DNA from: an uncultured Collinsella sp.
GTDB lineage: Bacteria; Actinomycetota; Coriobacteriia; Coriobacteriales; Coriobacteriaceae
Length of the DNA stretch: 64,000 bases
NCBI GenBank assembly: GCA_934654585.1
Contig: CAKUGF010000008.1
Coordinates: 1-64,000 of the forward strand
Direction of reading: 5' to 3'
Shown: positions 10,723-57,420 of the stretch, in pieces
Layout: each line of letters opens with the position of its first letter
How positions within the stretch are numbered: position 1 is the stretch's first letter
Position numbers and translations under genes: made by a program
Notes under the pieces: generated by a model
What the model was told of the DNA's origin: nothing
The model's database searches: none
The model's input: the letters and a program-made list of their open reading frames with translations, nothing else

Positions 10723-10756
10723 GGAGTTGGCGGGGCGATGCTGCCTCGCTAACTCC
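10723..10756. terminator. Bidirectional hairpin between yacP and the HipA-like gene
   Basis: GGAGTTGGCGGGGC pairs with GCCTCGCTAACTCC over a 6-base loop. It overlaps the last codons of the convergent HipA-like gene, so one stem may serve both convergent transcripts. No long T-run is present. Confidence 0.5.
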
Positions 10757-12089
10757 ATTCAGCGATATCGATCATTCTCTCGAGGCGCCATGCTAGCGCC
10801 TCTTTTAGATAAGACAGTCTTGCTGTCAGGGCATCGTTTTTAGACAGAATCTCAATCGCCTCGTCGACAAAACCCTCGAGTTTGTTTCCATCGAACCAGC
10901 TCATATCCTCGACGAGCAACATCTGTTTGGCGGGGCTTGAATGAAACTGCGCGCTGGTAAAACTGTGTTCTCCTGCCCGAAGTTCCTCAAGAGATATGTT
11001 GCACCAGAGTGATGAGCCCGAATCGAAGATGGGAGCCGGTCTGCAGGCTAGTGTGTTGACGTTTCGTACGAGGCCAAAGTTTCGCCAATGTCGGTCGTAG
11101 TTGGCGAGGATGTCATCACATACGATCATGCGGTCGAGAGCGTCCTTGACGTCTGTCGCTCCGAGTTCCTCGCAGTTTGTCACATACCGTTCGTAGTCGG
11201 TCAGTCGTCCATCTGCATTTGCATGCTGGTTTACATAGAATGCGGGGACATACTCTTCTTCATCAGTTAAGAATACATCGCATGTGCTCAGGGCCGACGT
11301 GCCCGTGCCTTCGAGCGAATAGGGTATAAAATCGCAGGCGTTTAGGATGCGGCGGTAAAGCGCGGTTGCCACCAGTTCGTTATACGGTTCTTGGTTTAAA
11401 TGCGCTCCTGCCTTGTGGAGAACTCGATGTTTGCCTTCGCATGTCCAATACTTCTGAAGATTGCCGTCCGAGGTGTTGTCGGGCTTTGCGGCGGCTGTTT
11501 TACCCTCTGGGGCAAAGGGCGCAATGGTCAACGAGACGTCGTCAAAAGCATTATTGAAGAAGTTAATATCCTCCCACGCGAGACCGGAATCTTGGGGCCT
11601 AATCCAATACTGGTCGGATAGGGAGAGGCCGAGATTTCGCTGGACGAGTTCATCGGGAACGTCGACTGCGGCTTCTGCCAGCAGGGATGACAACCCAATG
11701 CGCGCGAGCGGGATGCCGCGGCCACGCCACCAAATACGGAAAGAATCGAGCGATATAGGACTATTGGGGCCAAATACTCCAATAGGGGCGTGGGCGTAAT
11801 CGATGTCGGTGCCGATGTGGGTGAAGTCTTTTCGTGATGTGCTGTAGACCAGTTGAGCGACTTCGTGTGTGCGGTTCATGAGGGTAAACGTGATTTCGCT
11901 CTTTCCATGGCCGCGACGGGGGCGTCCTCCCGTTTTGGTCACGGAGCGGAGTCGTGCGTTGACGCTGTCTTTGTCGATGAGCCACACACCAGAAGCCTTA
12001 CGTGCTTCAAGTGCTCCGTTTTTAATGAGCTCCTGAACTCTGCGCGGGGTGATGTCGAGCAACTCAGCAGCTTCCTTTGTGGTCAGCAT
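10749..12089 (-). CDS. HipA-like kinase with its own N-terminal HTH domain
   Basis: The 446-residue product starts with an excisionase/MerR-type helix-turn-helix (residues 1-50: TTKEAAELLDITPRRVQELI, then GVWLIDKDSV). The body has HipA-type kinase features: HRVLHKAGAHLNQEPYNELV with a Lys, CDDILANYDRHWRNFGLVRN as catalytic loop and APIFDSGSSLW as metal-binding loop. Fusing a DNA-binding domain to a HipA kinase would give one protein that both regulates its promoter and acts as the effector; that is inference. No separate hipB lies upstream. A perfect 22-bp dyad directly upstream is the likely binding site. Target and toxicity are unknown. Confidence 0.75.
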   Translation of the reverse strand: MLTTKEAAELLDITPRRVQELIKNGALEARKASGVWLIDKDSVNARLRSVTKTGGRPRRGHGKSEITFTLMNRTHEVAQLVYSTSRKDFTHIGTDIDYAHAPIGVFGPNSPISLDSFRIWWRGRGIPLARIGLSSLLAEAAVDVPDELVQRNLGLSLSDQYWIRPQDSGLAWEDINFFNNAFDDVSLTIAPFAPEGKTAAAKPDNTSDGNLQKYWTCEGKHRVLHKAGAHLNQEPYNELVATALYRRILNACDFIPYSLEGTGTSALSTCDVFLTDEEEYVPAFYVNQHANADGRLTDYERYVTNCEELGATDVKDALDRMIVCDDILANYDRHWRNFGLVRNVNTLACRPAPIFDSGSSLWCNISLEELRAGEHSFTSAQFHSSPAKQMLLVEDMSWFDGNKLEGFVDEAIEILSKNDALTARLSYLKEALAWRLERMIDIAEWS

Positions 12090-12166: not shown

Positions 12167-12314
12167 GAGATTGAGGACGAACTGGCTGAAATGAACGGGT
12201 TTGGCGCCAGATCGCTGCTGGATTTTGCATATTTGCATAACGCTGTGCAGGCCTGTTGCGCCTCGTTCTCAATTCCATTATTCTTAACTGGCTTCGCGCG
12301 AAAGCGCCAAGTGT

Positions 12315-12389
12315 GCCAGTGTGGCGCAACGGTAGCGCAACTGATTTGTAATCAGTGGGTTGCGGGTTCGATTCCTGTCACTGGCTCCA
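12315..12389 (+). tRNA. tRNA-Thr (UGU)
   Basis: GCCAGTG (12315-12321) pairs with CACTGGC (12379-12385); the CCA end is encoded. The anticodon arm ACTGA-TTTGTAA-TCAGT gives anticodon UGU. A terminator follows at once, so the gene is transcribed alone. Confidence 0.95.
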
Positions 12390-12398
12390 TGAGAGTTT

Positions 12399-12437
12399 CG
12401 GGCTCTGTTCCCTCGTGGGACAGGGCCCGTTTCTATT
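12399..12437 (+). terminator. Terminator after tRNA-Thr
   Basis: CGGGCTCTGTTCCC pairs with GGGACAGGGCCCG over a TCGT loop, followed by TTTCTATTTT. Confidence 0.85.
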
Positions 12438-12480
12438 TTGATGGATCATCGGGCTCAGCGTTCGTCTCATTCCTCAGTTT

Positions 12481-12537
12481 GTCTCGATCTGTAACACCAA
12501 GACGGGAAATTCGCTTCTAGCTGTTACAGATCGAGAC
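12481..12537. repeat. 57-bp inverted repeat, family A, copy 1
   Basis: GTCTCGATCTGTAACA at 12481-12496 is matched in inverse at 12522-12537 around a 25-base centre. It has the same geometry (16-25-16) as the copies near 15.1 and 25.5 kb. Confidence 0.9.
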
Positions 12538-12830
12538 GAAAGCCGGGACCCTCGGCAGTTCGTTAAATGGCGTTGCGCGCCATTCTCGTATTTACAGCAC
12601 GGCACTGACCGAATAATTGACATCCAAGAAGGGTGTTCTGAGCATCTCGGATTAGACTGATGGCTTAGGCTCTGATGGGATTTGATAATGCCGAGAGACT
12701 GTCGGCAACTCGTTGCTGGACGACGTATTAAGGGGCATGCCGGGATCCGATTGACGATTGGCTATGCAGGTGCTTTGTCTAAATCAAAAGAATCGGATGG
12801 GGCATCAAGCAAATCGAGAAGGACGGAACG
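12538..12830. other. Gap with no recognised gene
   Basis: No convincing gene, RNA or repeat is seen. A 48-codon open frame starts at 12688 and ends at the start of the next gene, but it resembles nothing I know and has no clear ribosome site. The promoter of the 12831 gene should lie here. Confidence 0.5.
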
Positions 12831-13331
12831 ATGAAACTATCGAATGAAGAACTCGATTCAGCCCTTGCCGAGGCGGGACTTGAACTTGCTCAGCCGTATG
12901 ACGAGAAAGGCAAGTATCGCAAGGACCAGTATCTATTTACACGTTGCACGACGTGCGGAACGCAGGCGCATTTCCGCCTCAAGTACATCTTGGACAAAAA
13001 CAGCATTGGCGATAAAGTATGTCGAGCCTGCTATTGGACGGGTTGGTATGCCGATTGTCGCGTGCTGAGGAACGAGGCGATTCAATCGCTGCTTTCCCAG
13101 GGCTATAACTATAACGATCTGGTCAAACAGGGTGTAATGGACGAAAGAACTGCCCTTCGCCTTTTCGAAGCTCGCGACCTTGTCGAAGAAAATGGCTACG
13201 AGCTTATCGACCTCATCTCAGGAAAACAGACTGGCGATGACCTGCTACTTGTGAAGTGCCACGCATGCGGAAGGCAGACAGTGGAGCGTCCCGGCGACGT
13301 TGTGTATGGGTGCACCTGCAAAGGGAGATGA
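12831..13331 (+). CDS. Uncharacterised zinc-ribbon protein
   Basis: I do not recognise the function. The 166-residue soluble protein has paired cysteines at residues 39/42, 64/67, 143/146 and 161/163, so it probably folds as two zinc ribbons or treble clefs flanking a helical middle (LVKQGVMDERTALRLFEARDLVEENG). AGAAGGACGG precedes the ATG. The next gene starts within about 40 bases, so the two are probably one operon. Codon use is less GC-rich than in the housekeeping genes around it, consistent with an acquired island. A nucleic-acid or protein-binding adaptor role is possible but unproven. Confidence 0.6.
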   Translation: MKLSNEELDSALAEAGLELAQPYDEKGKYRKDQYLFTRCTTCGTQAHFRLKYILDKNSIGDKVCRACYWTGWYADCRVLRNEAIQSLLSQGYNYNDLVKQGVMDERTALRLFEARDLVEENGYELIDLISGKQTGDDLLLVKCHACGRQTVERPGDVVYGCTCKGR

Positions 13332-13374
13332 CTTGAACCGGTACGGTGAGTGGAATGGCGAAAGGAATGGTTGG

Positions 13375-14091
13375 ATGGCTGTAAATCTCAAAAACGTTAA
13401 AGATACGGTAAACCTTGCGGTGGAGGTCCTGGGCGCTGCGGCTGCTGTCATTGAGGGCGCAAAGGAGCTCGGTGTCGATGTCGACGCCGTTGGCGGCGCC
13501 GTAAAGGATGCGGCAGGCGGCGCTGCTAACGGTGCGCGAGCCGTTGCCGATGGTATTGGTAAAGGGTTCGGCGCGGCAGCCGACGGCGTCGGCGCGGCAG
13601 TTGGCGCACTGGGCGGTGCTGCGAAAGCGCTTCAGGATTCAAGAGAAGCTGCCGAGGCTCGTAAGAGGATCAACGCTGCAAGGCAATCGATTTTTGAAGG
13701 TGCGTCGACGGTGATGCCCCTACACAAGTTTGTCTGTCAGCAGGACAAAGCTGCCGATGCTGCTTTTAACGGTTTCGATATGCCCGGCTGTTACCTTATC
13801 GCAAAGTATCAAAAGGGCGACCACGATAAGAACTACAGCGATTACCTGGGTATTTACGTGGGCTCGAGTGAGCACATGTCGGAAGATATCGTGTCCGTGC
13901 CTACGCGCTTGGGCGATCCGGATGTGTATGCCGACTACAAGTACCATCAAAATGTGATGCTGTTCGTGTTCCCCTGCGAGCTAAAAGACCTTGATGAACG
14001 TTGCGAACTCTTGCTGCGATCGTTTGAAGGCATGAGACTCTATAACGGTGCAGGAGTATCTGTCGAGAGAGTGGCTGATGAAGACCTATAA
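13375..14091 (+). CDS. Uncharacterised Gly/Ala-rich protein with a possible GIY-YIG-like domain
   Basis: The function is unknown. The first half (about residues 15-90) is a Gly/Ala-rich amphipathic stretch with repeats of the type GAVKDAAGG, GIGKGFGAAADG and GVGAAVGALGG, reminiscent of membrane-active or pore-lining segments. The second half (about 112-220) has GCYLIAKY at 138-145 and LGIYVGSS at 158-165, spaced like the GIY and YIG strands of GIY-YIG nucleases; the usual downstream Arg and Glu are not clear, so it may be degenerate or inactive. ATG 13375 has AAAGGA 8 bases upstream; TTG 13333 after AAGGGAG is an alternative start. The end overlaps the next gene by 14 bases. Confidence 0.5.
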   Translation: MAVNLKNVKDTVNLAVEVLGAAAAVIEGAKELGVDVDAVGGAVKDAAGGAANGARAVADGIGKGFGAAADGVGAAVGALGGAAKALQDSREAAEARKRINAARQSIFEGASTVMPLHKFVCQQDKAADAAFNGFDMPGCYLIAKYQKGDHDKNYSDYLGIYVGSSEHMSEDIVSVPTRLGDPDVYADYKYHQNVMLFVFPCELKDLDERCELLLRSFEGMRLYNGAGVSVERVADEDL

Positions 14092-15010
14092 CCTGGATAC
14101 CATCCAGAAGGTTCCCCTGCGCGAGGTGTGGCCGCATGAGGCCCATGACTTCACCAAGTGGCTGGCCGAGGACCAGAACCTCGCAACCCTCGGGCTTGCG
14201 GTTGGAATCGAGCTCGAGCTCATAGAGACTGAGTCGTCGGTCGGCTCGTTCAACGTGGACATCTACGCGCAGGAGTCCGGCACGGGCCGCAAGGTGATCA
14301 TCGAGAACCAGCTCGAGGACACCAACCACGACCACCTCGGCAAGGTGATCACGTATGCCGCCGGCAAGGACGCCGAGGTCGTTATCTGGGTCGTGGCGCG
14401 CGCACGCGACGAACACCGCCAGGCGATCGAGTGACTCAACCAGCACACCGACAGCGACTTCGGCTTTTTCCTGGTCGAGGTCGAGCTTTGGAGGATCGGG
14501 GAATCCCTGCCCGCCCCGCGCTTCAACGTGGTCGAGCAGCCGAACGAGTGGACCAAGACAGTGAGGCTCTCCGAGGGGCTCAGCGAGACCGAGAAGGTCA
14601 AGCTGGCGTACTGGACGACCTACCGCGAGGTGGCGGACGACCATCCGGAGTTCCTCAAGGAGTTCAGCCCGCAGAAGCCCAGCAAGGACCATTGGTCGAC
14701 GCTTCGCTTGGGGGTCTCGGCATACCATCTCGCCCTGCTCATCGATACGCACAAGGGCCGCACGGGCATCGAGCTGTACGTGGACGACGACAAGGAGATC
14801 GGGCACCGCGCCATCGCCAACAAGGGGGTCTTCGAGGAGCGCCTCGGGCTGACGGCGGCACCCTTCGATGCGAAAAAGGCCTCGGGACTGCGCTTCTACA
14901 AGGCGGGCCACCCCATCAAGGGCCACCAGGACGCATGGCCCCGGTATATCGAGGAGCAGCTCGGATGGGCCATCAAGATGAAAAAGATAATCGCGGAGAT
15001 CGGACTCTAA
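14078..15010 (+). pseudogene. DUF4268-like protein gene, interrupted by an in-frame TGA
   Basis: The frame from ATG 14078 encodes MKTYNLDTIQKVPLREVWPH and continues to 15010, except for one TGA at 14432-14434. The residue there should be Trp (TGG to TGA) between RQAIE and LNQHTDSDFGFF. The first part resembles a PD-(D/E)xK-like nuclease fold (VDIYAQ, then VIIENQLEDTNHDHLG); the second resembles the DUF4268 domain found in nuclease-like proteins of defence islands. The product would be about 310 residues if the stop were read through. It is most simply a fresh nonsense mutation in a gene acquired with its two neighbours; a sequencing error is possible. Confidence 0.7.
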
Positions 15011-15055
15011 GGAAAGTGTGGGACTGACTCTCTAATATCAGAAGAGAAGAGCTGA

Positions 15056-15272
15056 ATCTCAATCTGCAACACCAAGATCACCATTCGGCGTCTAACTGTT
15101 ACAGATTGAGATATAGAGCCGGACGCCCGGGGAATGTCTCGATTTGTAACACGAAGGAGCGGAAAACCGTTCTACCTGTTACAGATCGAGACGTAAGCTG
15201 GGGTCGCTGCGTAGTGTCTCGATCTGTAACAGATAGGTGAGAAAATGTTCTAAAACTGTTACAGATCGAGAC
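15056..15272. repeat. Array of three 57-bp inverted repeats, family A, period exactly 80 bp
   Basis: Units are 15056-15112, 15136-15192 and 15216-15272. Each is a 16-base arm, a 25-base centre and the inverse 16-base arm; 23 bases separate units. Unit one has ATCTCAATCTGcAACA where units two and three have GTCTCGAT(T/C)TGTAACA, and its right arm carries the matching changes. The centres differ but mostly end in CTAAC or CTACC. No coding function is apparent. Confidence 0.9.
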
Positions 15273-15324
15273 AAAGGTCGGAGCGGGTCCAGCTGTTCAC
15301 CTCGAGCGAGGATATTCAGACAGA

Positions 15325-15447
15325 CGAGCGTGGAAAATCTCCCGCCTGGGGAACGAGCGTGGATAATCTCCCACTTTGGCCTTGGAATCACGCCAAAAGT
15401 GGGAGATTATCCACGCTCGAATTCAAACGGGAGATATTCCACCCTCG
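15325..15447. repeat. 66-bp inverted repeat, family C, copy 1, with nested outer copies
   Basis: The 24 bases 15354-15377 (containing GTGGATAATCTCCCACTTT) recur in inverse at 15396-15419 around an 18-base centre. A degenerate copy of each arm lies outside: 15325-15353 and about 15418-15447, and a weaker one from about 15303. A second full copy of the 66-bp element lies at 41019-41084. From 15448 to 15661 I see nothing further. Confidence 0.85.
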
Positions 15448-15661
15448 ATATTGTCGGGAAAGCCCGATCTCGCCTTATATATAAGTACAAATGGGCCAGT
15501 ATCGAAGCATTGCCCGGCACGTTCACTCCATTACACCAAAGTGTTCCCTCGGGAAATGTCACCACGACATGCAAATCCTCTGCCCATTATATCCAAACTC
15601 AGCAAACCCGCAGGTCAGAGGTACATAGATACGCCCGGCACCGTGTATCTAGAGGTTTTCG

Positions 15662-15691
15662 TTGACAGCCCCCAAGGTCACATCGTATTAT
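15662..15691 (+). promoter_or_regulatory. Promoter of the tRNA-Tyr/Thr/Met-tuf unit
   Basis: TTGACA at 15662-15667 and TATTAT at 15686-15691 are 18 bases apart. The preceding bases GAGGTTTTCG are identical to those before the rpmG promoter, which suggests shared control of translation genes. Confidence 0.8.
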
Positions 15692-15753
15692 CTTTTTCGT
15701 TCGCGGGGGCGGCGGTCCAAAAGACCAAAGGACCTGCGGATACTTGAACGATT

Positions 15754-15835
15754 GGGAGTTTGCCCGAGTGGTTAATGGGGACGGGCTGTAAACCCGTTGG
15801 CTCTGCCTACATAGGTTCGAATCCTATAGCTCCCA
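15754..15835 (+). tRNA. tRNA-Tyr (GUA)
   Basis: This is a class II tRNA with a long variable arm. GGGAGTT pairs with AGCTCCC, and the anticodon loop CTGTAAA gives GUA. The CCA end is not encoded. Confidence 0.92.
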
Positions 15836-20222: not shown

Positions 20223-20267
20223 CCAAAACCACCACAAAGGGGACAGGCACCTTTGTGGTGGTTTTGG
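20223..20267. repeat. 45-bp inverted repeat, family D, copy 1
   Basis: CCAAAACCACCACAAAGG is matched in inverse around the 9-base centre GGACAGGCA. Related copies are at 25673, 28400 and 31416. Confidence 0.9.
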
Positions 20268-24318: not shown

Positions 24319-25491
24319 ATGACGGTCAAGTTGGAAAATCCGTTTGCAAGCGGGCCGAGTAGCGAGAGCTGGAGCTGCAACGTGAAGAAGAACTATAAGA
24401 TTTGCTGCCTTCCGGGTGACGGCATTGGGCCCGAGGTTATTGCCGAGGGCAAGAAAGTGCTGGCTGCCGTGGGAAAGCGTGCTGGCGTCGAGTTTGCCTT
24501 CGAAGACCATCTAATCGGCGGCGCGGCGATTGATGCGTGTGGTGATCCGTTGCCTACCGAAACTCTTGCGGCGGCGAAGGCGTCTGACGCGGTGTTGCTG
24601 GCATCCGTAGGTGGCCCTAAGTGGGATTCGACTGATCCGACGGCTCCGCGTCCCGAACAAGGCCTGCTGCGCATCCGCAAGGAGCTCGGCCTCTATACCA
24701 ACCTTCGTCCCGTCAAGATCTACGATGCACTGGCCGGCGCGTCGACGCTTCGCCCCGAGATCATCAAGGGCGTTGACATGGTGCTCGTCCGCGAACTCAC
24801 CGGTGGTATTTACTTTGGCAAGCACGAGCGCTTCTACGATGAGAGCGGTGCGGGCGCCAGCGGTACTGCCGGCCAGCGCGCGGTCGACGTGATGGAGTAC
24901 CGCGAGTACGAGATCGAGCGCATTGCTCGTCGGGCGTTCGAAGCGGCTCGCAAGCGTCGCGGTAAGGTGACGAGCGTGGATAAGCGCAACGTGCTGGAGA
25001 CGAGCCGCATGTGGCGCGAGATCGTGCATCGCGTGCATGATGGGGAGTACTCCGATGTGCAGCTCGAGGACCTGCTCGTCGACAACGCCGCCATGCAACT
25101 CATCAACCGACCGGCGGACTTTGACGTCGTGGTGACGGAGAACATGTTCGGCGATATCTTGTCCGACGAGGCGGCGCAGATTACGGGCTCACTCGGCATG
25201 CTCGCCTCTGCCTCGCTGGGCGATGGCGTGTCGCTGTTCGAGCCGAGCGCCGGCAGCGCGCCCGATATCGCGGGGCTCGGCATCGCCAACCCGCTCGCGC
25301 AGATTCTCTCCGCGGCAATGTTGCTCACCTATGCGCTCGACATGGGCGAGCAGGCGGCTTGGATTGAAAATGCCGTGGCACGTGTGCTCGACGAAGGCTG
25401 GCGCACCCGCGACATCGCCGATGCCAACACCCCGGCCGACAAAATCCTCGGCACCGCGGCAATGGGAGACAAGGTCGTCGCCGCGCTGTAG
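24319..25491 (+). CDS. leuB: 3-isopropylmalate dehydrogenase
   Basis: LeuB oxidises and decarboxylates 3-isopropylmalate with NAD and Mg2+. Motifs are ICCLPGDGIGPEV, VRELTGGIYFGK, ENMFGDILSDEAA and the NAD site GSAPDIAGLGIANP. As called the protein is 390 residues, about 25 longer than usual, with a serine-rich N-terminal extension. ATG 24319 has AGGAGG 11 bases upstream (inside the leuD end); GTG 24382 would give the usual length and has GGAG 7 bases before it. The start is therefore uncertain. The leu cluster ends here. Confidence 0.93.
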   Translation: MTVKLENPFASGPSSESWSCNVKKNYKICCLPGDGIGPEVIAEGKKVLAAVGKRAGVEFAFEDHLIGGAAIDACGDPLPTETLAAAKASDAVLLASVGGPKWDSTDPTAPRPEQGLLRIRKELGLYTNLRPVKIYDALAGASTLRPEIIKGVDMVLVRELTGGIYFGKHERFYDESGAGASGTAGQRAVDVMEYREYEIERIARRAFEAARKRRGKVTSVDKRNVLETSRMWREIVHRVHDGEYSDVQLEDLLVDNAAMQLINRPADFDVVVTENMFGDILSDEAAQITGSLGMLASASLGDGVSLFEPSAGSAPDIAGLGIANPLAQILSAAMLLTYALDMGEQAAWIENAVARVLDEGWRTRDIADANTPADKILGTAAMGDKVVAAL

Positions 25492-25506: not shown

Positions 25507-25643
25507 ATCTCAATCTGTAACATCTGGACGGCAAAAAAGCTCCTAACTGTTACAGATTGAGATTTTCGGTTTCGTTATCGTGGTTAATCTCGATCTGTAA
25601 CATCTAGCCGAGTATTTGGGCTCTAACTGTTACAGATTGAGAC
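25507..25643. repeat. Two 57-bp inverted repeats, family A, period 80 bp
   Basis: Units are 25507-25563 and 25587-25643, again 16-25-16 with a 23-base gap. The first has ATCTCAATCTGTAACA with a perfect inverse arm; the second has mixed G/A variants. Both centres end in CTCCTAAC or CTCTAAC. Confidence 0.9.
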
Positions 25644-25672: not shown

Positions 25673-25717
25673 TCAAAACCACCACAAAGGTGCCTGTCCC
25701 CTTTGTGGTGGTTTTGG
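25673..25717. repeat. 45-bp inverted repeat, family D, copy 2
   Basis: CAAAACCACCACAAAGG is matched in inverse around TGCCTGTCC. It lies between the convergent ends of leuB and the metallophosphoesterase gene, where it could end both transcripts. Confidence 0.88.
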
Positions 25718-25721
25718 CTTG

Positions 25722-26432
25722 TTACCAGGGAGTCTTGCCGAATGAGGACTCGATGGCGTCGTGGCGTTTGAGCTCGCGGCGCATGGTTTGCGAGTTGAGC
25801 CAGGCTGCTTGCCAGCCGCGGATGGGGTAGCGCGTCTCGTCGAGTTCAAACTGCGTATAGCCGCAGGCATTGATAATCGTCGTTCCGCATGCGTGCTGCC
25901 GCTCGCGCTGGAAATCGCAACCGTAGCATTGGTGCACATGCCCGTGCACCATGTAGTCGGCCCCCCAGGACTCAAGCGCCGTGTTAAAGCATTCGAACCC
26001 TCGATGTGGCAGATCGTCCAGATCGCCCATGCCGGCGGCGGGGGCGTGGGTAAGCAGGATGTCGCAGCCGCCGACCATCCTGACTTTGCGGGAAAGCTTA
26101 CGCACGCGCTTGGCCATCTCGCGCTCGGTGTACATGTTGGCCCCGTCGCGATAACGCATGGACCCGCCAAGGCCCGCAATGCGAATCCCTCGGTACGTGT
26201 ACACGCTGTCTTCCACGCAGATGCATCCTCCCGGCGCATGGCGTGCGTAACGATCGTCGTGGTTGCCGCGTACGTAGATGAGCGGTTTGTTGATGACGGT
26301 GACCAAAAACTCAAGATAGTCTGGGTCCAGGTCGCCGGCGGACAAAATCAGGTCGACACCCTCAAAGCGCTCCTTGCGAAAGCACTCCCAAAGGCATCGC
26401 TCTTCGGTATCGGCTATGGCAAGGATCTTCAT
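25722..26432 (-). CDS. Calcineurin-like metallophosphoesterase
   Basis: The 236-residue cytosolic protein has the full metallophosphoesterase motif set: ADTEE near residue 7, SAGDLDPDY (31-39), VRGNHDDRY (54-62), LLTHAPAAG (near 128) and HGHVHQCYG (near 163). The first motif reads D-T-E where D-x-H is usual, so the metal site is slightly altered. Its start overlaps the stop of the upstream BMP-domain gene by four bases, so the two proteins are co-translated. The substrate (nucleotide, phosphodiester or protein) is unknown. Confidence 0.85.
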   Translation of the reverse strand: MKILAIADTEERCLWECFRKERFEGVDLILSAGDLDPDYLEFLVTVINKPLIYVRGNHDDRYARHAPGGCICVEDSVYTYRGIRIAGLGGSMRYRDGANMYTEREMAKRVRKLSRKVRMVGGCDILLTHAPAAGMGDLDDLPHRGFECFNTALESWGADYMVHGHVHQCYGCDFQRERQHACGTTIINACGYTQFELDETRYPIRGWQAAWLNSQTMRRELKRHDAIESSFGKTPW

Positions 26433-28345: not shown

Positions 28346-28399
28346 GGATTCGCTCCTTTAGTCGTTTAAACAACGATATAAACCATGGTACCACGATGC

Positions 28400-28438
28400 G
28401 AAACCACCATAAAGGTGCCTGTCCCCTTTGTGGCAGGT
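28400..28438. repeat. Family D inverted repeat, copy 3 (degenerate)
   Basis: AAACCACCATAAAGG and CCTTTGTGGCAGGTT flank TGCCTGTCC. The right arm runs into the stop codon of the MscS gene. Mismatches make it the weakest copy. Confidence 0.75.
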
Positions 28439-29205
28439 TAGGCGATGATGGGGGCGATGGCGCGGATGCAGGCGTCGGCTGCCGTAAAGGTGGTGCTGTC
28501 GTCGCTGACGATAAAGATGATCTTGCCCTTGATGCCAAAGTCGCCGATCTCGCTAAAGAGCACGTAGGGGTCCTTGTCAAAGCCTGAGATGGGCGAGACG
28601 GCTGCCTTGGTGGCGCTTGTGAGTTCGTCTGCCAGCGCATCGAGCGAAGCCCACTTAGACGTGTCCTTTACGGCAACGGGCACGGCCACGCGCCCAAAGG
28701 GCATCAGGTGCACGAGCGTGTTCTTGGAGATGTTTGAGTTGGGGACGATGATGGTCTGCCCGCAGGCGTCCTCGATGGTGGTATGGCGCCAGGTGATGTC
28801 TTGGACCACGCCCGATACGCCGCCGACCTCGATATTGTCGCCGGGCTTGATGATGCCCATAAAGGTCACCTGCATACCGCCGATGAGGTTCGAAAGCGTG
28901 TCCTGAAAGCCGAGCGAGATGGCGATGCCGCCGACGCCAAGAGCGGCGACGAGGGCGTTTGCATTAATGCCAAAGCAGTTGTCGAGGATAAAACTGCCGC
29001 CGATCATCCAGATGACGGCGCGCGCGATGTTGATGAAGATGCTCGATGCAGGGAGCGGGTTGTCGTCGCGGTTGAGCAGATGGTGCAGGGTCTTGGACGC
29101 GACTTTGGCGGCAACGGCAGTGCCCAAGGCCAAGATGCCGGCCCAGATGATGTTGTGGACCCATCGCTGCGCAAAGAAATGAAGAATCGGCTCAAACAAT
29201 TCCAT
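28438..29205 (-). CDS. Small-conductance mechanosensitive channel, MscS family
   Basis: The 255-residue membrane protein should open under osmotic shock to release solutes. It has about three N-terminal transmembrane helices, the pore-lining helix with Gly/Ala spacing (ALVAALGVGGIAISLGFQD), then the cytosolic beta domain (IKPGDNIEVGGVSGVVQDIT, then IIVPNSNISKN) and a C-terminal vestibule domain. The length is close to a minimal MscS. AGGAGG precedes the start. Confidence 0.9.
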   Translation of the reverse strand: MELFEPILHFFAQRWVHNIIWAGILALGTAVAAKVASKTLHHLLNRDDNPLPASSIFINIARAVIWMIGGSFILDNCFGINANALVAALGVGGIAISLGFQDTLSNLIGGMQVTFMGIIKPGDNIEVGGVSGVVQDITWRHTTIEDACGQTIIVPNSNISKNTLVHLMPFGRVAVPVAVKDTSKWASLDALADELTSATKAAVSPISGFDKDPYVLFSEIGDFGIKGKIIFIVSDDSTTFTAADACIRAIAPIIA

Positions 29206-31415: not shown

Positions 31416-31511
31416 CCAAAACCACCACGAAAGTGCCTGTCCCCTTCGTGGTGGTTTTGACGTTTGCGCAGATAAAACCTGCCAAAATAAACCTGTCCCT
31501 TTTTGGCAGGT
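31416..31511. repeat. Family D inverted repeat, copy 4, and a neighbouring hairpin
   Basis: Copy 4 (31416-31460) has CACGAAAG/CTTCGTG where other copies have CACAAAGG/CCTTTGTG; the A-T to G-C change is paired. At 31477-31511, ACCTGCCAAAA and TTTTGGCAGGT form a second hairpin that also has CCTGTCC in its loop. It ends next to the stop codon of the ABC ATPase gene and may be its terminator. Confidence 0.82.
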
Positions 31512-41018: not shown

Positions 41019-41084
41019 CGAGGGTGGATAATCTCCCGTTTTTGGCCTGCTATTCGACTAAAAGTGGGAGATTATCCACTCTCG
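41019..41084. repeat. 66-bp inverted repeat, family C, copy 2
   Basis: It has the same 24-18-24 geometry as the copy at 15354 and shares GTGGATAATCTCCC and its inverse. It begins 12 bases after the esterase stop. A partial arm (AAATCCACTCTCG) follows at 41101. Confidence 0.88.
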
Positions 41085-44530: not shown

Positions 44531-44543
44531 CCCAGCCCTCATT

Positions 44544-44610
44544 AGTTGCGGTGAAATAGTTCTTGTTTTTGCTGGCTGAAGCCCCAAGCAGGAACTATTC
44601 CACCGCAACT
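44544..44610. repeat. 67-bp inverted repeat, family B, copy 1
   Basis: The 22-base arms (AGTTGCGGTG... and the inverse, with two weak positions) surround a 23-base centre ending GAAGCCCCAAG. The second copy at 50399 has the same lengths and a similar centre. Confidence 0.9.
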
Positions 44611-44629
44611 TTGTTTTTGATGCCCGGCC

Positions 44630-44890
44630 CGGAAACCGCATCCCAGTTTTGTCCTTCAAGGTGGGACGCAGTTTCCGGAAGAGGCCTGCTTGGGAAACTG
44701 TGTCCCAGTTTGAGTGCGGATTCCGGGATATGGTTTCCGGAACAGGCCTGTTTGGGAAACATCCCGTTTCGAGCTCAAATTCTGGGTCGTAGTTTCCCCG
44801 AGGGGTCCCGTTGGGAAACTGCGACCCGGTTCGAGCTTTAATAGCGGGACGTGCTTTCCGCAAGGGCACCGTTTGGGAAACCGCGTCCCG
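44630..44890. repeat. Array of 48-bp inverted repeats, family F, array 1
   Basis: Units start at 44630, 44692, 44754, 44813 and a partial one at 44875, so the period is 62 bases (59 once, through a 3-base deletion). Each unit is an arm of about 16 bases such as CGGAAACTGCGTCCCA, a centre of about 16 and the inverse arm ending TTTCCG. The 14-base gaps are partly palindromic, e.g. AACAGGCCTGTT. Bases 44630-44881 are identical to 46262-46513. Confidence 0.92.
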
Positions 44891-44940
44891 GATCCACCGG
44901 GGACGGAGGAGAGCGGATCGTTTTGAGTGGCGGCAGGCTG

Positions 44941-46261: not shown

Positions 46262-46513
46262 CGGAAACCGCATCCCAGTTTTGTCCTTCAAGGTGGGACG
46301 CAGTTTCCGGAAGAGGCCTGCTTGGGAAACTGTGTCCCAGTTTGAGTGCGGATTCCGGGATATGGTTTCCGGAACAGGCCTGTTTGGGAAACATCCCGTT
46401 TCGAGCTCAAATTCTGGGTCGTAGTTTCCCCGAGGGGTCCCGTTGGGAAACTGCGACCCGGTTCGAGCTTTAATAGCGGGACGTGCTTTCCGCAAGGGCA
46501 CCGTTTGGGAAAC
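46262..46513. repeat. Family F array 2, perfect 252-bp copy of array 1
   Basis: All 252 bases match 44630-44881 in the same orientation, 1632 bases apart. The sequences outside the match differ at once on both sides. Confidence 0.95.
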
Positions 46514-46584
46514 TGCGCCCCGGAACCCTTCTGCCGGATTGCTTTGGTGCAACGCAACCTGTCCCCCTTGCACCAATATGGCAA

Positions 46585-50383: not shown

Positions 50384-50398
50384 TCGCGTCCCCTTATC

Positions 50399-50465
50399 AG
50401 TTGCGGTGGAATAGTTCCTGTTTAAGGCCTCTGAAGGCCCAAGCAGGAACTATTCCACCGCAACT
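50399..50465. repeat. 67-bp inverted repeat, family B, copy 2
   Basis: Perfect 22-base arms surround a 23-base centre that includes CTGAAGGCCCAAG. It starts 16 bases after the MFS stop. Confidence 0.92.
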
Positions 50466-50536
50466 TATTTTGGGGAAGAGGATACAAGCCGGGCATACAA
50501 TGGATGGCGTTGTGTTGCGCTTACCGGGAGGTTGCT

Positions 50537-57187: not shown

Positions 57188-57420
57188 CGGAAAGCGCGTC
57201 CCACTCTTTGGTTGAATTCCGGGATGCGCTTTCCGGTTGGGGCCCTAGCGGAAAGTACATCCCGGAATGCTGGTTCAAACTGGGATGCAGTTTCCCCGAC
57301 GGGGCTGTTCCGGAAAGTGCGACCCGGAATTTCGGCTCAGAACGGGATACAGTTTCCCAAACAGGGCTCAAACGGAAACTGCGTCCCAGTCTGAGGCCTC
57401 AAAACGGGATGCAGTTTCCG
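57188..57420. repeat. Array of four 48-bp inverted repeats, family F, array 3
   Basis: Units are 57188-57235, 57249-57296, 57311-57358 and 57373-57420: exactly 48 bases each, with gaps of 13, 14 and 14. Arms vary (AGCGCGTCCC, AGTACATCCC, AGTGCGACCC, ACTGCGTCCC) and the inverse arms change with them in part. It fills the space between the galU terminator and the rpoB promoter. Confidence 0.92.

What the first reader, a model, noticed from the sequence alone, without database searches (positions are those of the whole stretch)
15056..15272. Array of alternating-orientation 16-bp repeats with an exact 80-bp period
Three 57-bp inverted repeats are spaced exactly 80 bp apart, and two more at 25507 and 25587 show the same 80-bp step; a single copy lies at 12481. 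Every unit is 16-25-16 and every gap is 23 bases. Seen differently, a 16-bp motif alternates in orientation with spacers of 25 and 23 bases. Arm variants GTCTCGAT and ATCTCAAT keep pairing. Fixed spacing with variable spacers suggests a DNA-binding scaffold, a structured RNA array or a hairpin-copying mobile element, not random palindromes.
Basis: seen in the sequence. Interest (0 to 1): 0.8.

Follow-up and report, generated by a model that had tools for sequence, protein, structure and literature searches.

The report
Fixed-pitch alternating DNA-site arrays in Collinsella
Collinsella aerofaciens and its close relatives carry arrays of a 16-bp DNA word, placed between genes, that flips direction every 40 bp with almost base-pair precision; they look like docking rails for a DNA-binding protein rather than RNA hairpins.

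Summary
They belong to a family of 51-129 half-sites per genome in 22 of 43 held Collinsella genomes; the other 21 have 0-3. The seven carriers sampled form one rpoB clade.

In loci chosen by single half-sites, half-sites lie 40 bp apart inside a unit in 169 of 172 and 40 or 41 bp apart between units in 106 of 106. Orthologous arrays differ by whole units.

The hairpin reading fails: in 407 units the arms vary independently (pairing 0.8924, shuffled 0.8918) and the loop avoids symmetry. A second family in the same genomes, pitch 32/29-30, behaves alike.

Best explanation: a double-stranded DNA scaffold for an oligomeric protein, laid out like E. coli BIMEs but lacking REP hairpins. One candidate partner is a RAYT-like protein in 21 of 22 carriers: intact, under purifying selection, yet without its catalytic HUH motif in 10 of 20 copies. 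It has no arrays beside it and was not found in one carrier. Function is inferred.

The parts
12481..12537 (.). single 57-bp unit: half-site + (12481-12496), 25-bp core, half-site - (12522-12537)
15056..15112 (.). unit 1 of a three-unit array
15113..15135 (.). 23-bp inter-unit gap
15136..15192 (.). unit 2 of the array
15193..15215 (.). 23-bp inter-unit gap
15216..15272 (.). unit 3 of the array
25507..25563 (.). unit 1 of a two-unit array between convergent genes (Iso_dh-family gene ending at 25491; metallophosphatase-family gene 25722-26432 on the minus strand)
25564..25586 (.). 23-bp inter-unit gap
25587..25643 (.). unit 2; its arms mismatch at the outermost pair (A against C)

Best explanation
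These are arrays of double-stranded protein-binding half-sites (consensus RTCTCRATCTGTAACA followed after one base by CTAG), placed in alternating orientation every 40-41 bp. Each inverted pair encloses a directional core (CTAG, a G+C-rich stretch, an A/T tract of three or more, a G+C-rich stretch, CTAG), and short A/T runs flank the arms. SHOWN: the geometry, the independence of the two arms, fewer length changes than in the flanks, restriction to the C. aerofaciens group among genomes held, placement between genes, gain or loss in whole 80-bp units. INFERRED: an oligomeric, sequence-specific DNA-binding protein of that group docks on successive half-sites about four helical turns apart and bends or wraps the DNA, so that the arrays act as architectural elements at transcription-unit boundaries. 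The protein is not identified; a RAYT-like Y1 protein that often lacks its catalytic motif is one candidate.
For: Spacing, loci picked by single half-sites only: 40 bp inside units in 169 of 172 (39 twice, in G001 and G019; 35 once, in the imported copy of non-carrier G022), 40 (66) or 41 (40) between units, 106 of 106. Enlarged set: 408 of 414 and 262 of 268, but the 120 added loci were picked by a pattern that demands one 40-bp unit, so this set is biased towards 40. Set aside as a weak chance site lying across a real one: 7 distances of 8; 13 of 8 and 20 same-strand of 32. Orthologous arrays of equal unit number (154 non-independent pairs): similar substitution in flanks and arrays (10.0%, 9.3%), at least one indel in 240 bp of flank in 126 pairs, array length change in 25. 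Arms: 407 unique units, Watson-Crick pairing 0.8924 against 0.8918 shuffled, z 0.24; with G-T 0.9370 against 0.9363, z 0.64; A against C in 100 of 404 at pair 6/52 and 116 of 402 at pair 1/57 (107.5 and 103.2 expected from the margins). Loop symmetry avoided, z -16.9, z -8.2 after orienting 307 units. Central triplet TTT 157, AAA 150 of 407. The same test does find paired inner bases in another family of these genomes (z +5.5, 24 units). Second family GGAAACTGCRTCCC: pitch 32 in 111 of 115, 29-30 in 91 of 92, arms z -0.47. Context: 25 convergent, 24 divergent, 18 co-directional of 67 placed; all called gaps of at least 80 bp give 49/60/130. Candidate partner: see full report.
Against: No binding protein is shown and there is no biochemistry. 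On 110 units the pair-counting tool gives a small excess of standard pairs (93.3% against 93.0%, 54 of 500 shuffles as high; covariation score 34 of 500; further pair types 19 of 500). Counting alignment gaps instead of net length, arrays have only half the indels per substitution of the flanks (0.052 against 0.103; in the 77 more diverged pairs 124 gaps against 191); I take many of these as alignment gaps that cancel, since 129 of 154 pairs have equal length, but did not prove it. Off-centre pairing in the core (i+j = 56 and 60) is above chance and only partly explained. About 27.5 bits over 16 positions (sum over, raised by the search) is more than an ordinary regulator site needs, so copying may also maintain the arms. 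Ori-proximal bias is weak (p 0.04, 0.07, 0.11 in three syntenic genomes; the G059 length was taken as 2.33 Mb, the true value is 2.306). 80 bp is 7.6 turns at 10.5 bp per turn. ParB paralogues do not track the arrays. The RAYT-like candidate was not found in carrier G007.
Confidence: 0.62

Rival explanations
1. REPIN/BIME-type mobile hairpins copied by a RAYT (Y1 tyrosine transposase): the 57-bp unit is recognised as a single-stranded hairpin and spread by the transposase, arrays being BIME-like tandem products.
For: Architecture is close: REPINs have two invariant 16-bp ends, inverted, with a spacer of set length (PMC3116915, passages); BIMEs are regularly spaced REPs in alternating orientation (PMC2817692, passages). 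A RAYT-like protein is present at 68% identity or more in 21 of 22 carriers and in none of 21 others, where the best match is 42%. Its annotated-length frame of 266-270 codons is open in 20 of 20 readable copies and the G028 copy at a contig edge matches without stops; sum dN/sum dS is 0.26 over 186 pairs. It has a Y1 domain and weak C-terminal helix-turn-helix matches below cut-off.
Against: Compensatory changes are common in REPINs; 407 units here show none. The half-site has no fold of its own and no outer GTAG tag. The HUH motif (catalytic in this family; that is recalled) is lost in 10 of 20 readable copies: HVR in six, xVD in four; those genomes keep as many half-sites (means 90.5 and 116.2 against 98.7 where HUH is kept; with counts). 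No half-site with up to 2 mismatches, of this or the second family, in the 21 loci read (99 kb). No strong hairpin within 500 bp of 15 of 16 copies (L085 the exception; the other five not scanned). Not found in carrier G007. Co-occurrence is confounded, as the carriers sampled form one clade.
Confidence: 0.2
2. Miniature inverted-repeat elements whose arms are terminal inverted repeats for a DDE-type transposase, amplified in tandem.
For: Two high-information inverted arms around a shorter core; arms independent, as expected for transposase-binding ends; intergenic location.
Against: The inter-unit gap is as length-constrained as the core (106 of 106 at 40-41), which a transposing 57-bp unit does not explain. 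Many positions are shared between species (16 ortholog groups among 75 arrays). No dedicated search for a parent element or for target-site duplications was run.
Confidence: 0.1
3. Structured RNA array or transcription terminators: the units act as hairpins in mRNA 3' ends.
For: Each window unit can fold to a stem of up to 16 bp (-21 to -33 kcal/mol on either strand); many arrays follow gene ends; marginal excess of pairing on 110 units.
Against: No arm covariation; A against C mismatches as common as chance; positions 58-60 after the stem are A more often than T and no terminator call falls in the arrays at 12481 and 15056 (25507 not scanned); 24 of 67 placed arrays lie between divergent genes; RNA hairpins would not need a fixed 23-24-bp linker; no Rfam match.
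Confidence: 0.05

Closest known systems
BIMEs (bacterial interspersed mosaic elements) of enterobacteria
   Same: Extragenic, clustered, alternating orientation, regular spacing, length differs between strains; BIMEs bind gyrase, IHF or Pol I (PMC2817692, passages).
   Different: BIME modules are REP palindromes, each a hairpin; here the module is a non-palindromic 16-bp half-site. Core and gap sequences vary widely between units but are nearly fixed in length. No IHF or gyrase site was tested.
REPINs (REP doublets forming hairpins)
   Same: Two conserved 16-bp ends in inverted orientation with a less conserved spacer of set length (PMC3116915, passages).
   Different: No compensatory changes; no REP palindrome inside the end; not found beside the co-occurring RAYT-like gene; mostly tandem arrays with fixed gaps rather than dispersed doublets.
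GTAG- and CGTC-tagged REPs and TIRs of tyrosine transposases
   Same: Short intergenic palindromic repeats in genomes with Y1 transposases (PMC3733652, passages).
   Different: No GTAG or CGTC tag at the unit edge; CTAG lies inside, next to the arm. The paper's main text does not name Collinsella (0 occurrences).
Collinsella-1 RNA motif
   Same: Name only; same genus.
   Different: No Rfam family reached gathering score in the window apart from tRNAs; at E up to 5 only miRNA families, by chance, over 12400-15400. One held paper names the motif (PMC2864571, search listing only).

Membership tests
REPIN / REP-RAYT system | inverted 16-mer ends with set spacing, extragenic | tested here: met
REPIN / REP-RAYT system | hairpin under selection: compensatory changes between the arms | tested here: not met
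   marginal excess on 110 units
REPIN / REP-RAYT system | REP palindrome with GTAG-type tag within each end | tested here: not met
   half-site folds to nothing; consensus
REPIN / REP-RAYT system | cognate RAYT gene flanked by the repeat | tested here: not met
   no half-site with up to 2 mismatches in 21 loci of the co-occurring clade; among 60 Y1 loci of several clades, 2 have one weak site
REPIN / REP-RAYT system | intact RAYT gene in genomes that keep the repeat | tested here: met
   20 of 20 readable copies open, 21 of 22 carriers
REPIN / REP-RAYT system | catalytic HUH motif kept in that RAYT | tested here: not met
   lost in 10 of 20 readable copies
BIME | regularly spaced repeats in alternating orientation, unit number variable | tested here: met
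BIME | modules are REP palindromes | tested here: not met
BIME | bound by IHF, gyrase or DNA polymerase I | not testable with these tools
   needs biochemistry
Rfam structured RNA | match to a curated family at gathering score | tested here: not met
   permissive search of 12400-15400
intrinsic terminator | G+C-rich stem followed by a T run | tested here: not met
   (12300-15800 scanned)
MITE of a DDE transposase | ends shared with a full-length element; target-site duplication | not tested
   no dedicated search

The most novel reading that the evidence does not exclude
C. aerofaciens has evolved a class of chromosomal rails: several families of non-palindromic half-sites, each repeated in alternating orientation at its own near-integral helical pitch (about 4 turns for TCTCRATCTGTAACA, about 3 for GGAAACTGCRTCCC), on which oligomeric proteins of that group wrap DNA at transcription-unit boundaries. 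One such protein may be a RAYT-family transposase that has shed its catalytic HUH motif and been kept for DNA binding, turning a hairpin-copying enzyme into an architectural factor.
Probability: 0.25. Interest if true: 0.85.

Novelty: new variant of a known kind. Interest (0 to 1): 0.58.

Why it matters
C. aerofaciens is a common human gut commensal (recalled), and each carrier genome holds roughly 25 to 65 of these units (half the counts). Repeats of this shape are usually taken for hairpins; a simple test on hundreds of copies says that here the hairpin is a by-product and the DNA spacing is what is kept. If a protein rides on the arrays, this is a compact natural system for studying how site orientation and base-pair-exact spacing organise a bacterial chromosome. 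The same test could be applied to other repeats now filed as REP, BIME or MITE.

Tried and rejected
A claim of my own that fell: one search reports in-frame stops in 6 of 21 RAYT-like matches, and I first took those genes for broken. On checking, all these stops lie upstream of the annotated start (one search gives 813 bp), and the gene is open in 20 of 20 readable copies.

RNA structure: Rfam, arm covariation. Off-centre inner pairing (i+j = 56, 60) is significant before and after orienting; I read it mostly as the imprint of a directional core seen in both orientations, but orienting does not remove it.

Loop inversion: the unoriented comparison suggested many, mostly loci read on opposite strands; in oriented orthologous pairs 0 of 346 unit comparisons were inverted, 294 same orientation. 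One likely true inversion remains, L133 against L039.

Chromosome position: ori-proximal trend not convincing. Tract orientation in G059 does not follow the replichore (left T 15, A 8; right T 11, A 7).

ParB paralogue: one strong ParB in 42 of 43 genomes, further weak matches in carriers and non-carriers alike.

Mobile vehicles: 0 viral contigs with an exact unit, no phage record, one plasmid-collection record, a 900-kb C. aerofaciens replicon with housekeeping genes.

Literature: the four 15-mer forms occur in no held paper. Collinsella with palindromic repeat (33 papers, 20 listed), Coriobacteri with REPIN (1), C. aerofaciens with repetitive extragenic (1), Collinsella with intergenic and inverted repeat (1): nothing relevant by listing. 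A BIME search found no paper.

Rows dropped: arrays with fewer than two sites and eight chance-hit or remnant loci; units with a weak site lying across them (window 15216 is therefore not in the 163- and 407-unit sets, but is in alignment A1); exact repeats counted once. A1 took 110 of 136 units available (135 plus window 15216). The rpoB tree used 27 of 30 genomes asked, outgroup included: G024 and G028 had no match, G014 a fragment.

Full report
CHECK. The 15-mer core of the arm occurs 12 times in the window against 0.20 expected. Counted as 15-mers, successive half-sites in an array start exactly 40 bp apart, alternating in strand.

DISTRIBUTION. The window's own assembly is not held. The nearest held genome, G001, has 51 forward and 51 reverse half-sites at up to 2 mismatches, the reversed-pattern control 1 and 4. 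With one mismatch, 22 of 43 genomes of the genus have 51 to 129 half-sites and 21 have 0 to 3; the control gave one hit in all 43. In the first survey, 23 genomes outside the genus had at most 2 each. Contig lengths identify G001 with C. aerofaciens 1001095H_141210_H8. In an rpoB tree of 27 genomes the 7 carriers sampled form one clade, support 1.0. So co-occurrence with any gene of that clade says little.

GEOMETRY. In loci picked by single half-sites (window, G001, G015, G019, and one or two loci from other genomes): 84 arrays or lone sites, 169 of 172 units at 40 bp, gaps 40 (66) or 41 (40) and nothing else. Of the three exceptions, two are 39 bp in carriers G001 and G019 and one is 35 bp in non-carrier G022. 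With 120 named loci added the figures are 408 of 414 and 262 of 268, but those loci were found with a pattern that demands a 40-bp unit. Arrays have 1 to 5 units, one has 8, of 164 (printed before that script failed). Orthologous arrays keep place and distance to neighbouring genes but differ by whole units: of 335 orthologous pairs 154 have equal number and 181 differ by one to six. For the 154, substitution is 10.0% in flanks and 9.3% in arrays; 126 pairs show a flank indel and 25 an array length change. By alignment gaps the contrast is only twofold (0.103 against 0.052 per substitution). Pairs are not independent. I read this as selection on length.

NOT A SELECTED HAIRPIN. In 163 unique units the variable arm positions are independent: pair 6/52 counts 45, 43, 32, 42 (Fisher p 0.35), pair 1/57 p 1.0. 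In 407 units Watson-Crick pairing in the arms is 0.8924 against 0.8918 shuffled, z 0.24; pair 1/57 departs from independence in the wrong direction for pairing (odds ratio 0.56, p 0.009), pair 6/52 p 0.16. With G-T counted, z 0.64. The structure-pair tool on 110 units sees a slight excess (93.3% against 93.0%, 54 of 500; covariation 34 of 500), the main result against me here. The loop is less symmetric than its columns predict (z -16.9; z -8.2 after orienting 307 units by their tract). The same test on another palindrome family of these genomes (TTGCGGTGAAAT) finds inner covariation, z +5.5 in 24 units, so it can see structure.

ANATOMY. Short A/T runs flank the arms (-2 to 0, 58 to 60). Inside, away from each arm, come one free base, CTAG, a G+C-rich stretch and a central A or T run; the central three bases are TTT in 157 and AAA in 150 of 407. 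Oriented by the T run the core is directional, roughly CTAGA-CCCG-TTT-GCCG-CTAG. This suggests bending or wrapping by protein, an inference: A/T runs sit 30 and about 20 bp apart, but 80 bp is 7.6 turns at 10.5.

CONTEXT. With a home-made gene caller that misses genes (it missed those nearest the 12481 unit), 67 arrays could be placed between two genes: 25 convergent, 24 divergent, 18 co-directional; 8 more could not be classified. Orthologous arrays are counted more than once. All called gaps of at least 80 bp in the same loci give 49, 60, 130. Named neighbours in the densest cluster, from one annotated strain, include glutamate synthase, a heavy-metal P-type ATPase and an amidohydrolase. Hence placement at transcription-unit boundaries and no obvious regulon.

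A SECOND FAMILY. GGAAACTGCRTCCC has 17 to 48 half-sites in all 22 carriers and 0 to 3 in the other 21; the reversed control gives 0 to 10. Its pitch is 32 inside units (111 of 115) and 29-30 between (91 of 92); arms z -0.47 in 111 units. Other inverted families have their own fixed distance: 51 (24 of 26), 42 (10 of 11), 59 and 27 (3 and 11).

IMPORTED COPIES. Of seven non-carriers with any hit, six were read (G062 was not). G009 and G018 hold chance sites. Four hold units in DNA close to carriers: G014 (intact unit; 96% over 265 bp), G022 (5-bp deletion in one core, second unit truncated; 92% over 1,323 bp), G029 and G031 (one 40-bp unit each, arm changes). Decay outside the group fits a missing trans-acting factor, but n is 4 and one is intact.

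RAYT-LIKE PROTEIN. Y1 transposases are common in the genus and beyond (37 of 58 genomes). One clade is in 21 of 22 carriers at 68% identity or more and in no non-carrier above 42%; it was not found in carrier G007. RefSeq annotates it as a transposase of 813 bp; my longer frame of about 340 codons includes upstream sequence, and the stops listed lie there. The gene is open in 20 of 20 readable copies, the G028 copy at a contig edge matches without stops, and sum dN/sum dS is 0.26 over 186 pairs. Yet HUH has become HVR in six and xVD in four of the 20, with dN/dS still 0.40 and 0.30 in those groups against 0.22 where HUH is kept. In the other Y1 clades read, with one exception (L119), every protein in which the script located the motif region keeps H-x-H. 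Half-site numbers do not fall with HUH loss. No array of either family lies in the 21 loci read. A protein kept without its catalytic motif is a candidate DNA-binding partner, no more: the carriers sampled are one clade, and G007 has arrays without it.

LITERATURE. REPINs: two invariant 16-bp ends, spacer length and hairpin capacity kept, compensatory changes common (PMC3116915, passages). BIMEs: regularly spaced REPs in alternating orientation (PMC2817692, passages). The arrays share the layout and fail the hairpin, tag and RAYT-flank criteria. No held paper contains the four 15-mer forms.

VERDICT. Real, strongly non-random, restricted to one group among the genomes held, and best read as a dsDNA scaffold for a protein. 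The protein and the function are not shown.

Noticed in passing
44631-44889, 46263-46521, 57189-57419: Second alternating-site family, GGAAACTGCRTCCC, with a 62-bp period; the copies at 44630-44895 and 46262-46527 are a 266-bp direct duplication (99% identical).
   Followed up: partly
15330-15442 and 41024-41079: Third family, GTGGATAATCTCCC: inverted sites 42 bp apart, with same-direction sites 28-29 bp further out at the first place.
   Followed up: partly
44536-44616 and 50391-50471: Palindrome family AGTTGCGGTGRAATA with compensating inner bases; 24 of 26 units have a fixed 51-bp distance.
   Followed up: partly
20224-20266, 25674-25716, 28399-28441, 31417-31459: 43-bp palindromes with GGTGCCTGTCCCC-type cores, one directly beside the 25507 array; they resemble RAYT-associated repeats (recalled, not tested).
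   Followed up: no
12538-15055: A 2.5-kb stretch of ORFs, one matching the first third of candidate defence family PDC-S11 (E 3.7e-60), lies between the single unit at 12481 and the array at 15056, near tRNA genes; it may have been inserted into or beside an ancestral array.
   Followed up: partly
10749-12089: 446-aa minus-strand ORF with an HTH_17 match (E 1.7e-10), a HipA_C match below cut-off and PDC-M03A hits, beside a tRNA gene.
   Followed up: no
L133:2699-2755 against L039:1540-1596: The 25-bp core is exactly inverted between orthologous units whose gaps keep their orientation.
   Followed up: partly
fetched carrier loci: A TTTTGAGGAATA family with inverted sites 59 and 27 bp apart (86-bp period).
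   Followed up: no
L075, L077-L080, L082, L083, L085, L086, L396: RAYT-like proteins that keep an open frame and dN/dS below 1 while the HUH motif is lost (HVR or xVD).
   Followed up: partly
NZ_OY725717.1 (899,693 bp): Record labelled a C. aerofaciens plasmid carries glutamate synthase, Suf and other housekeeping genes, so it is probably a chromosome piece.
   Followed up: no
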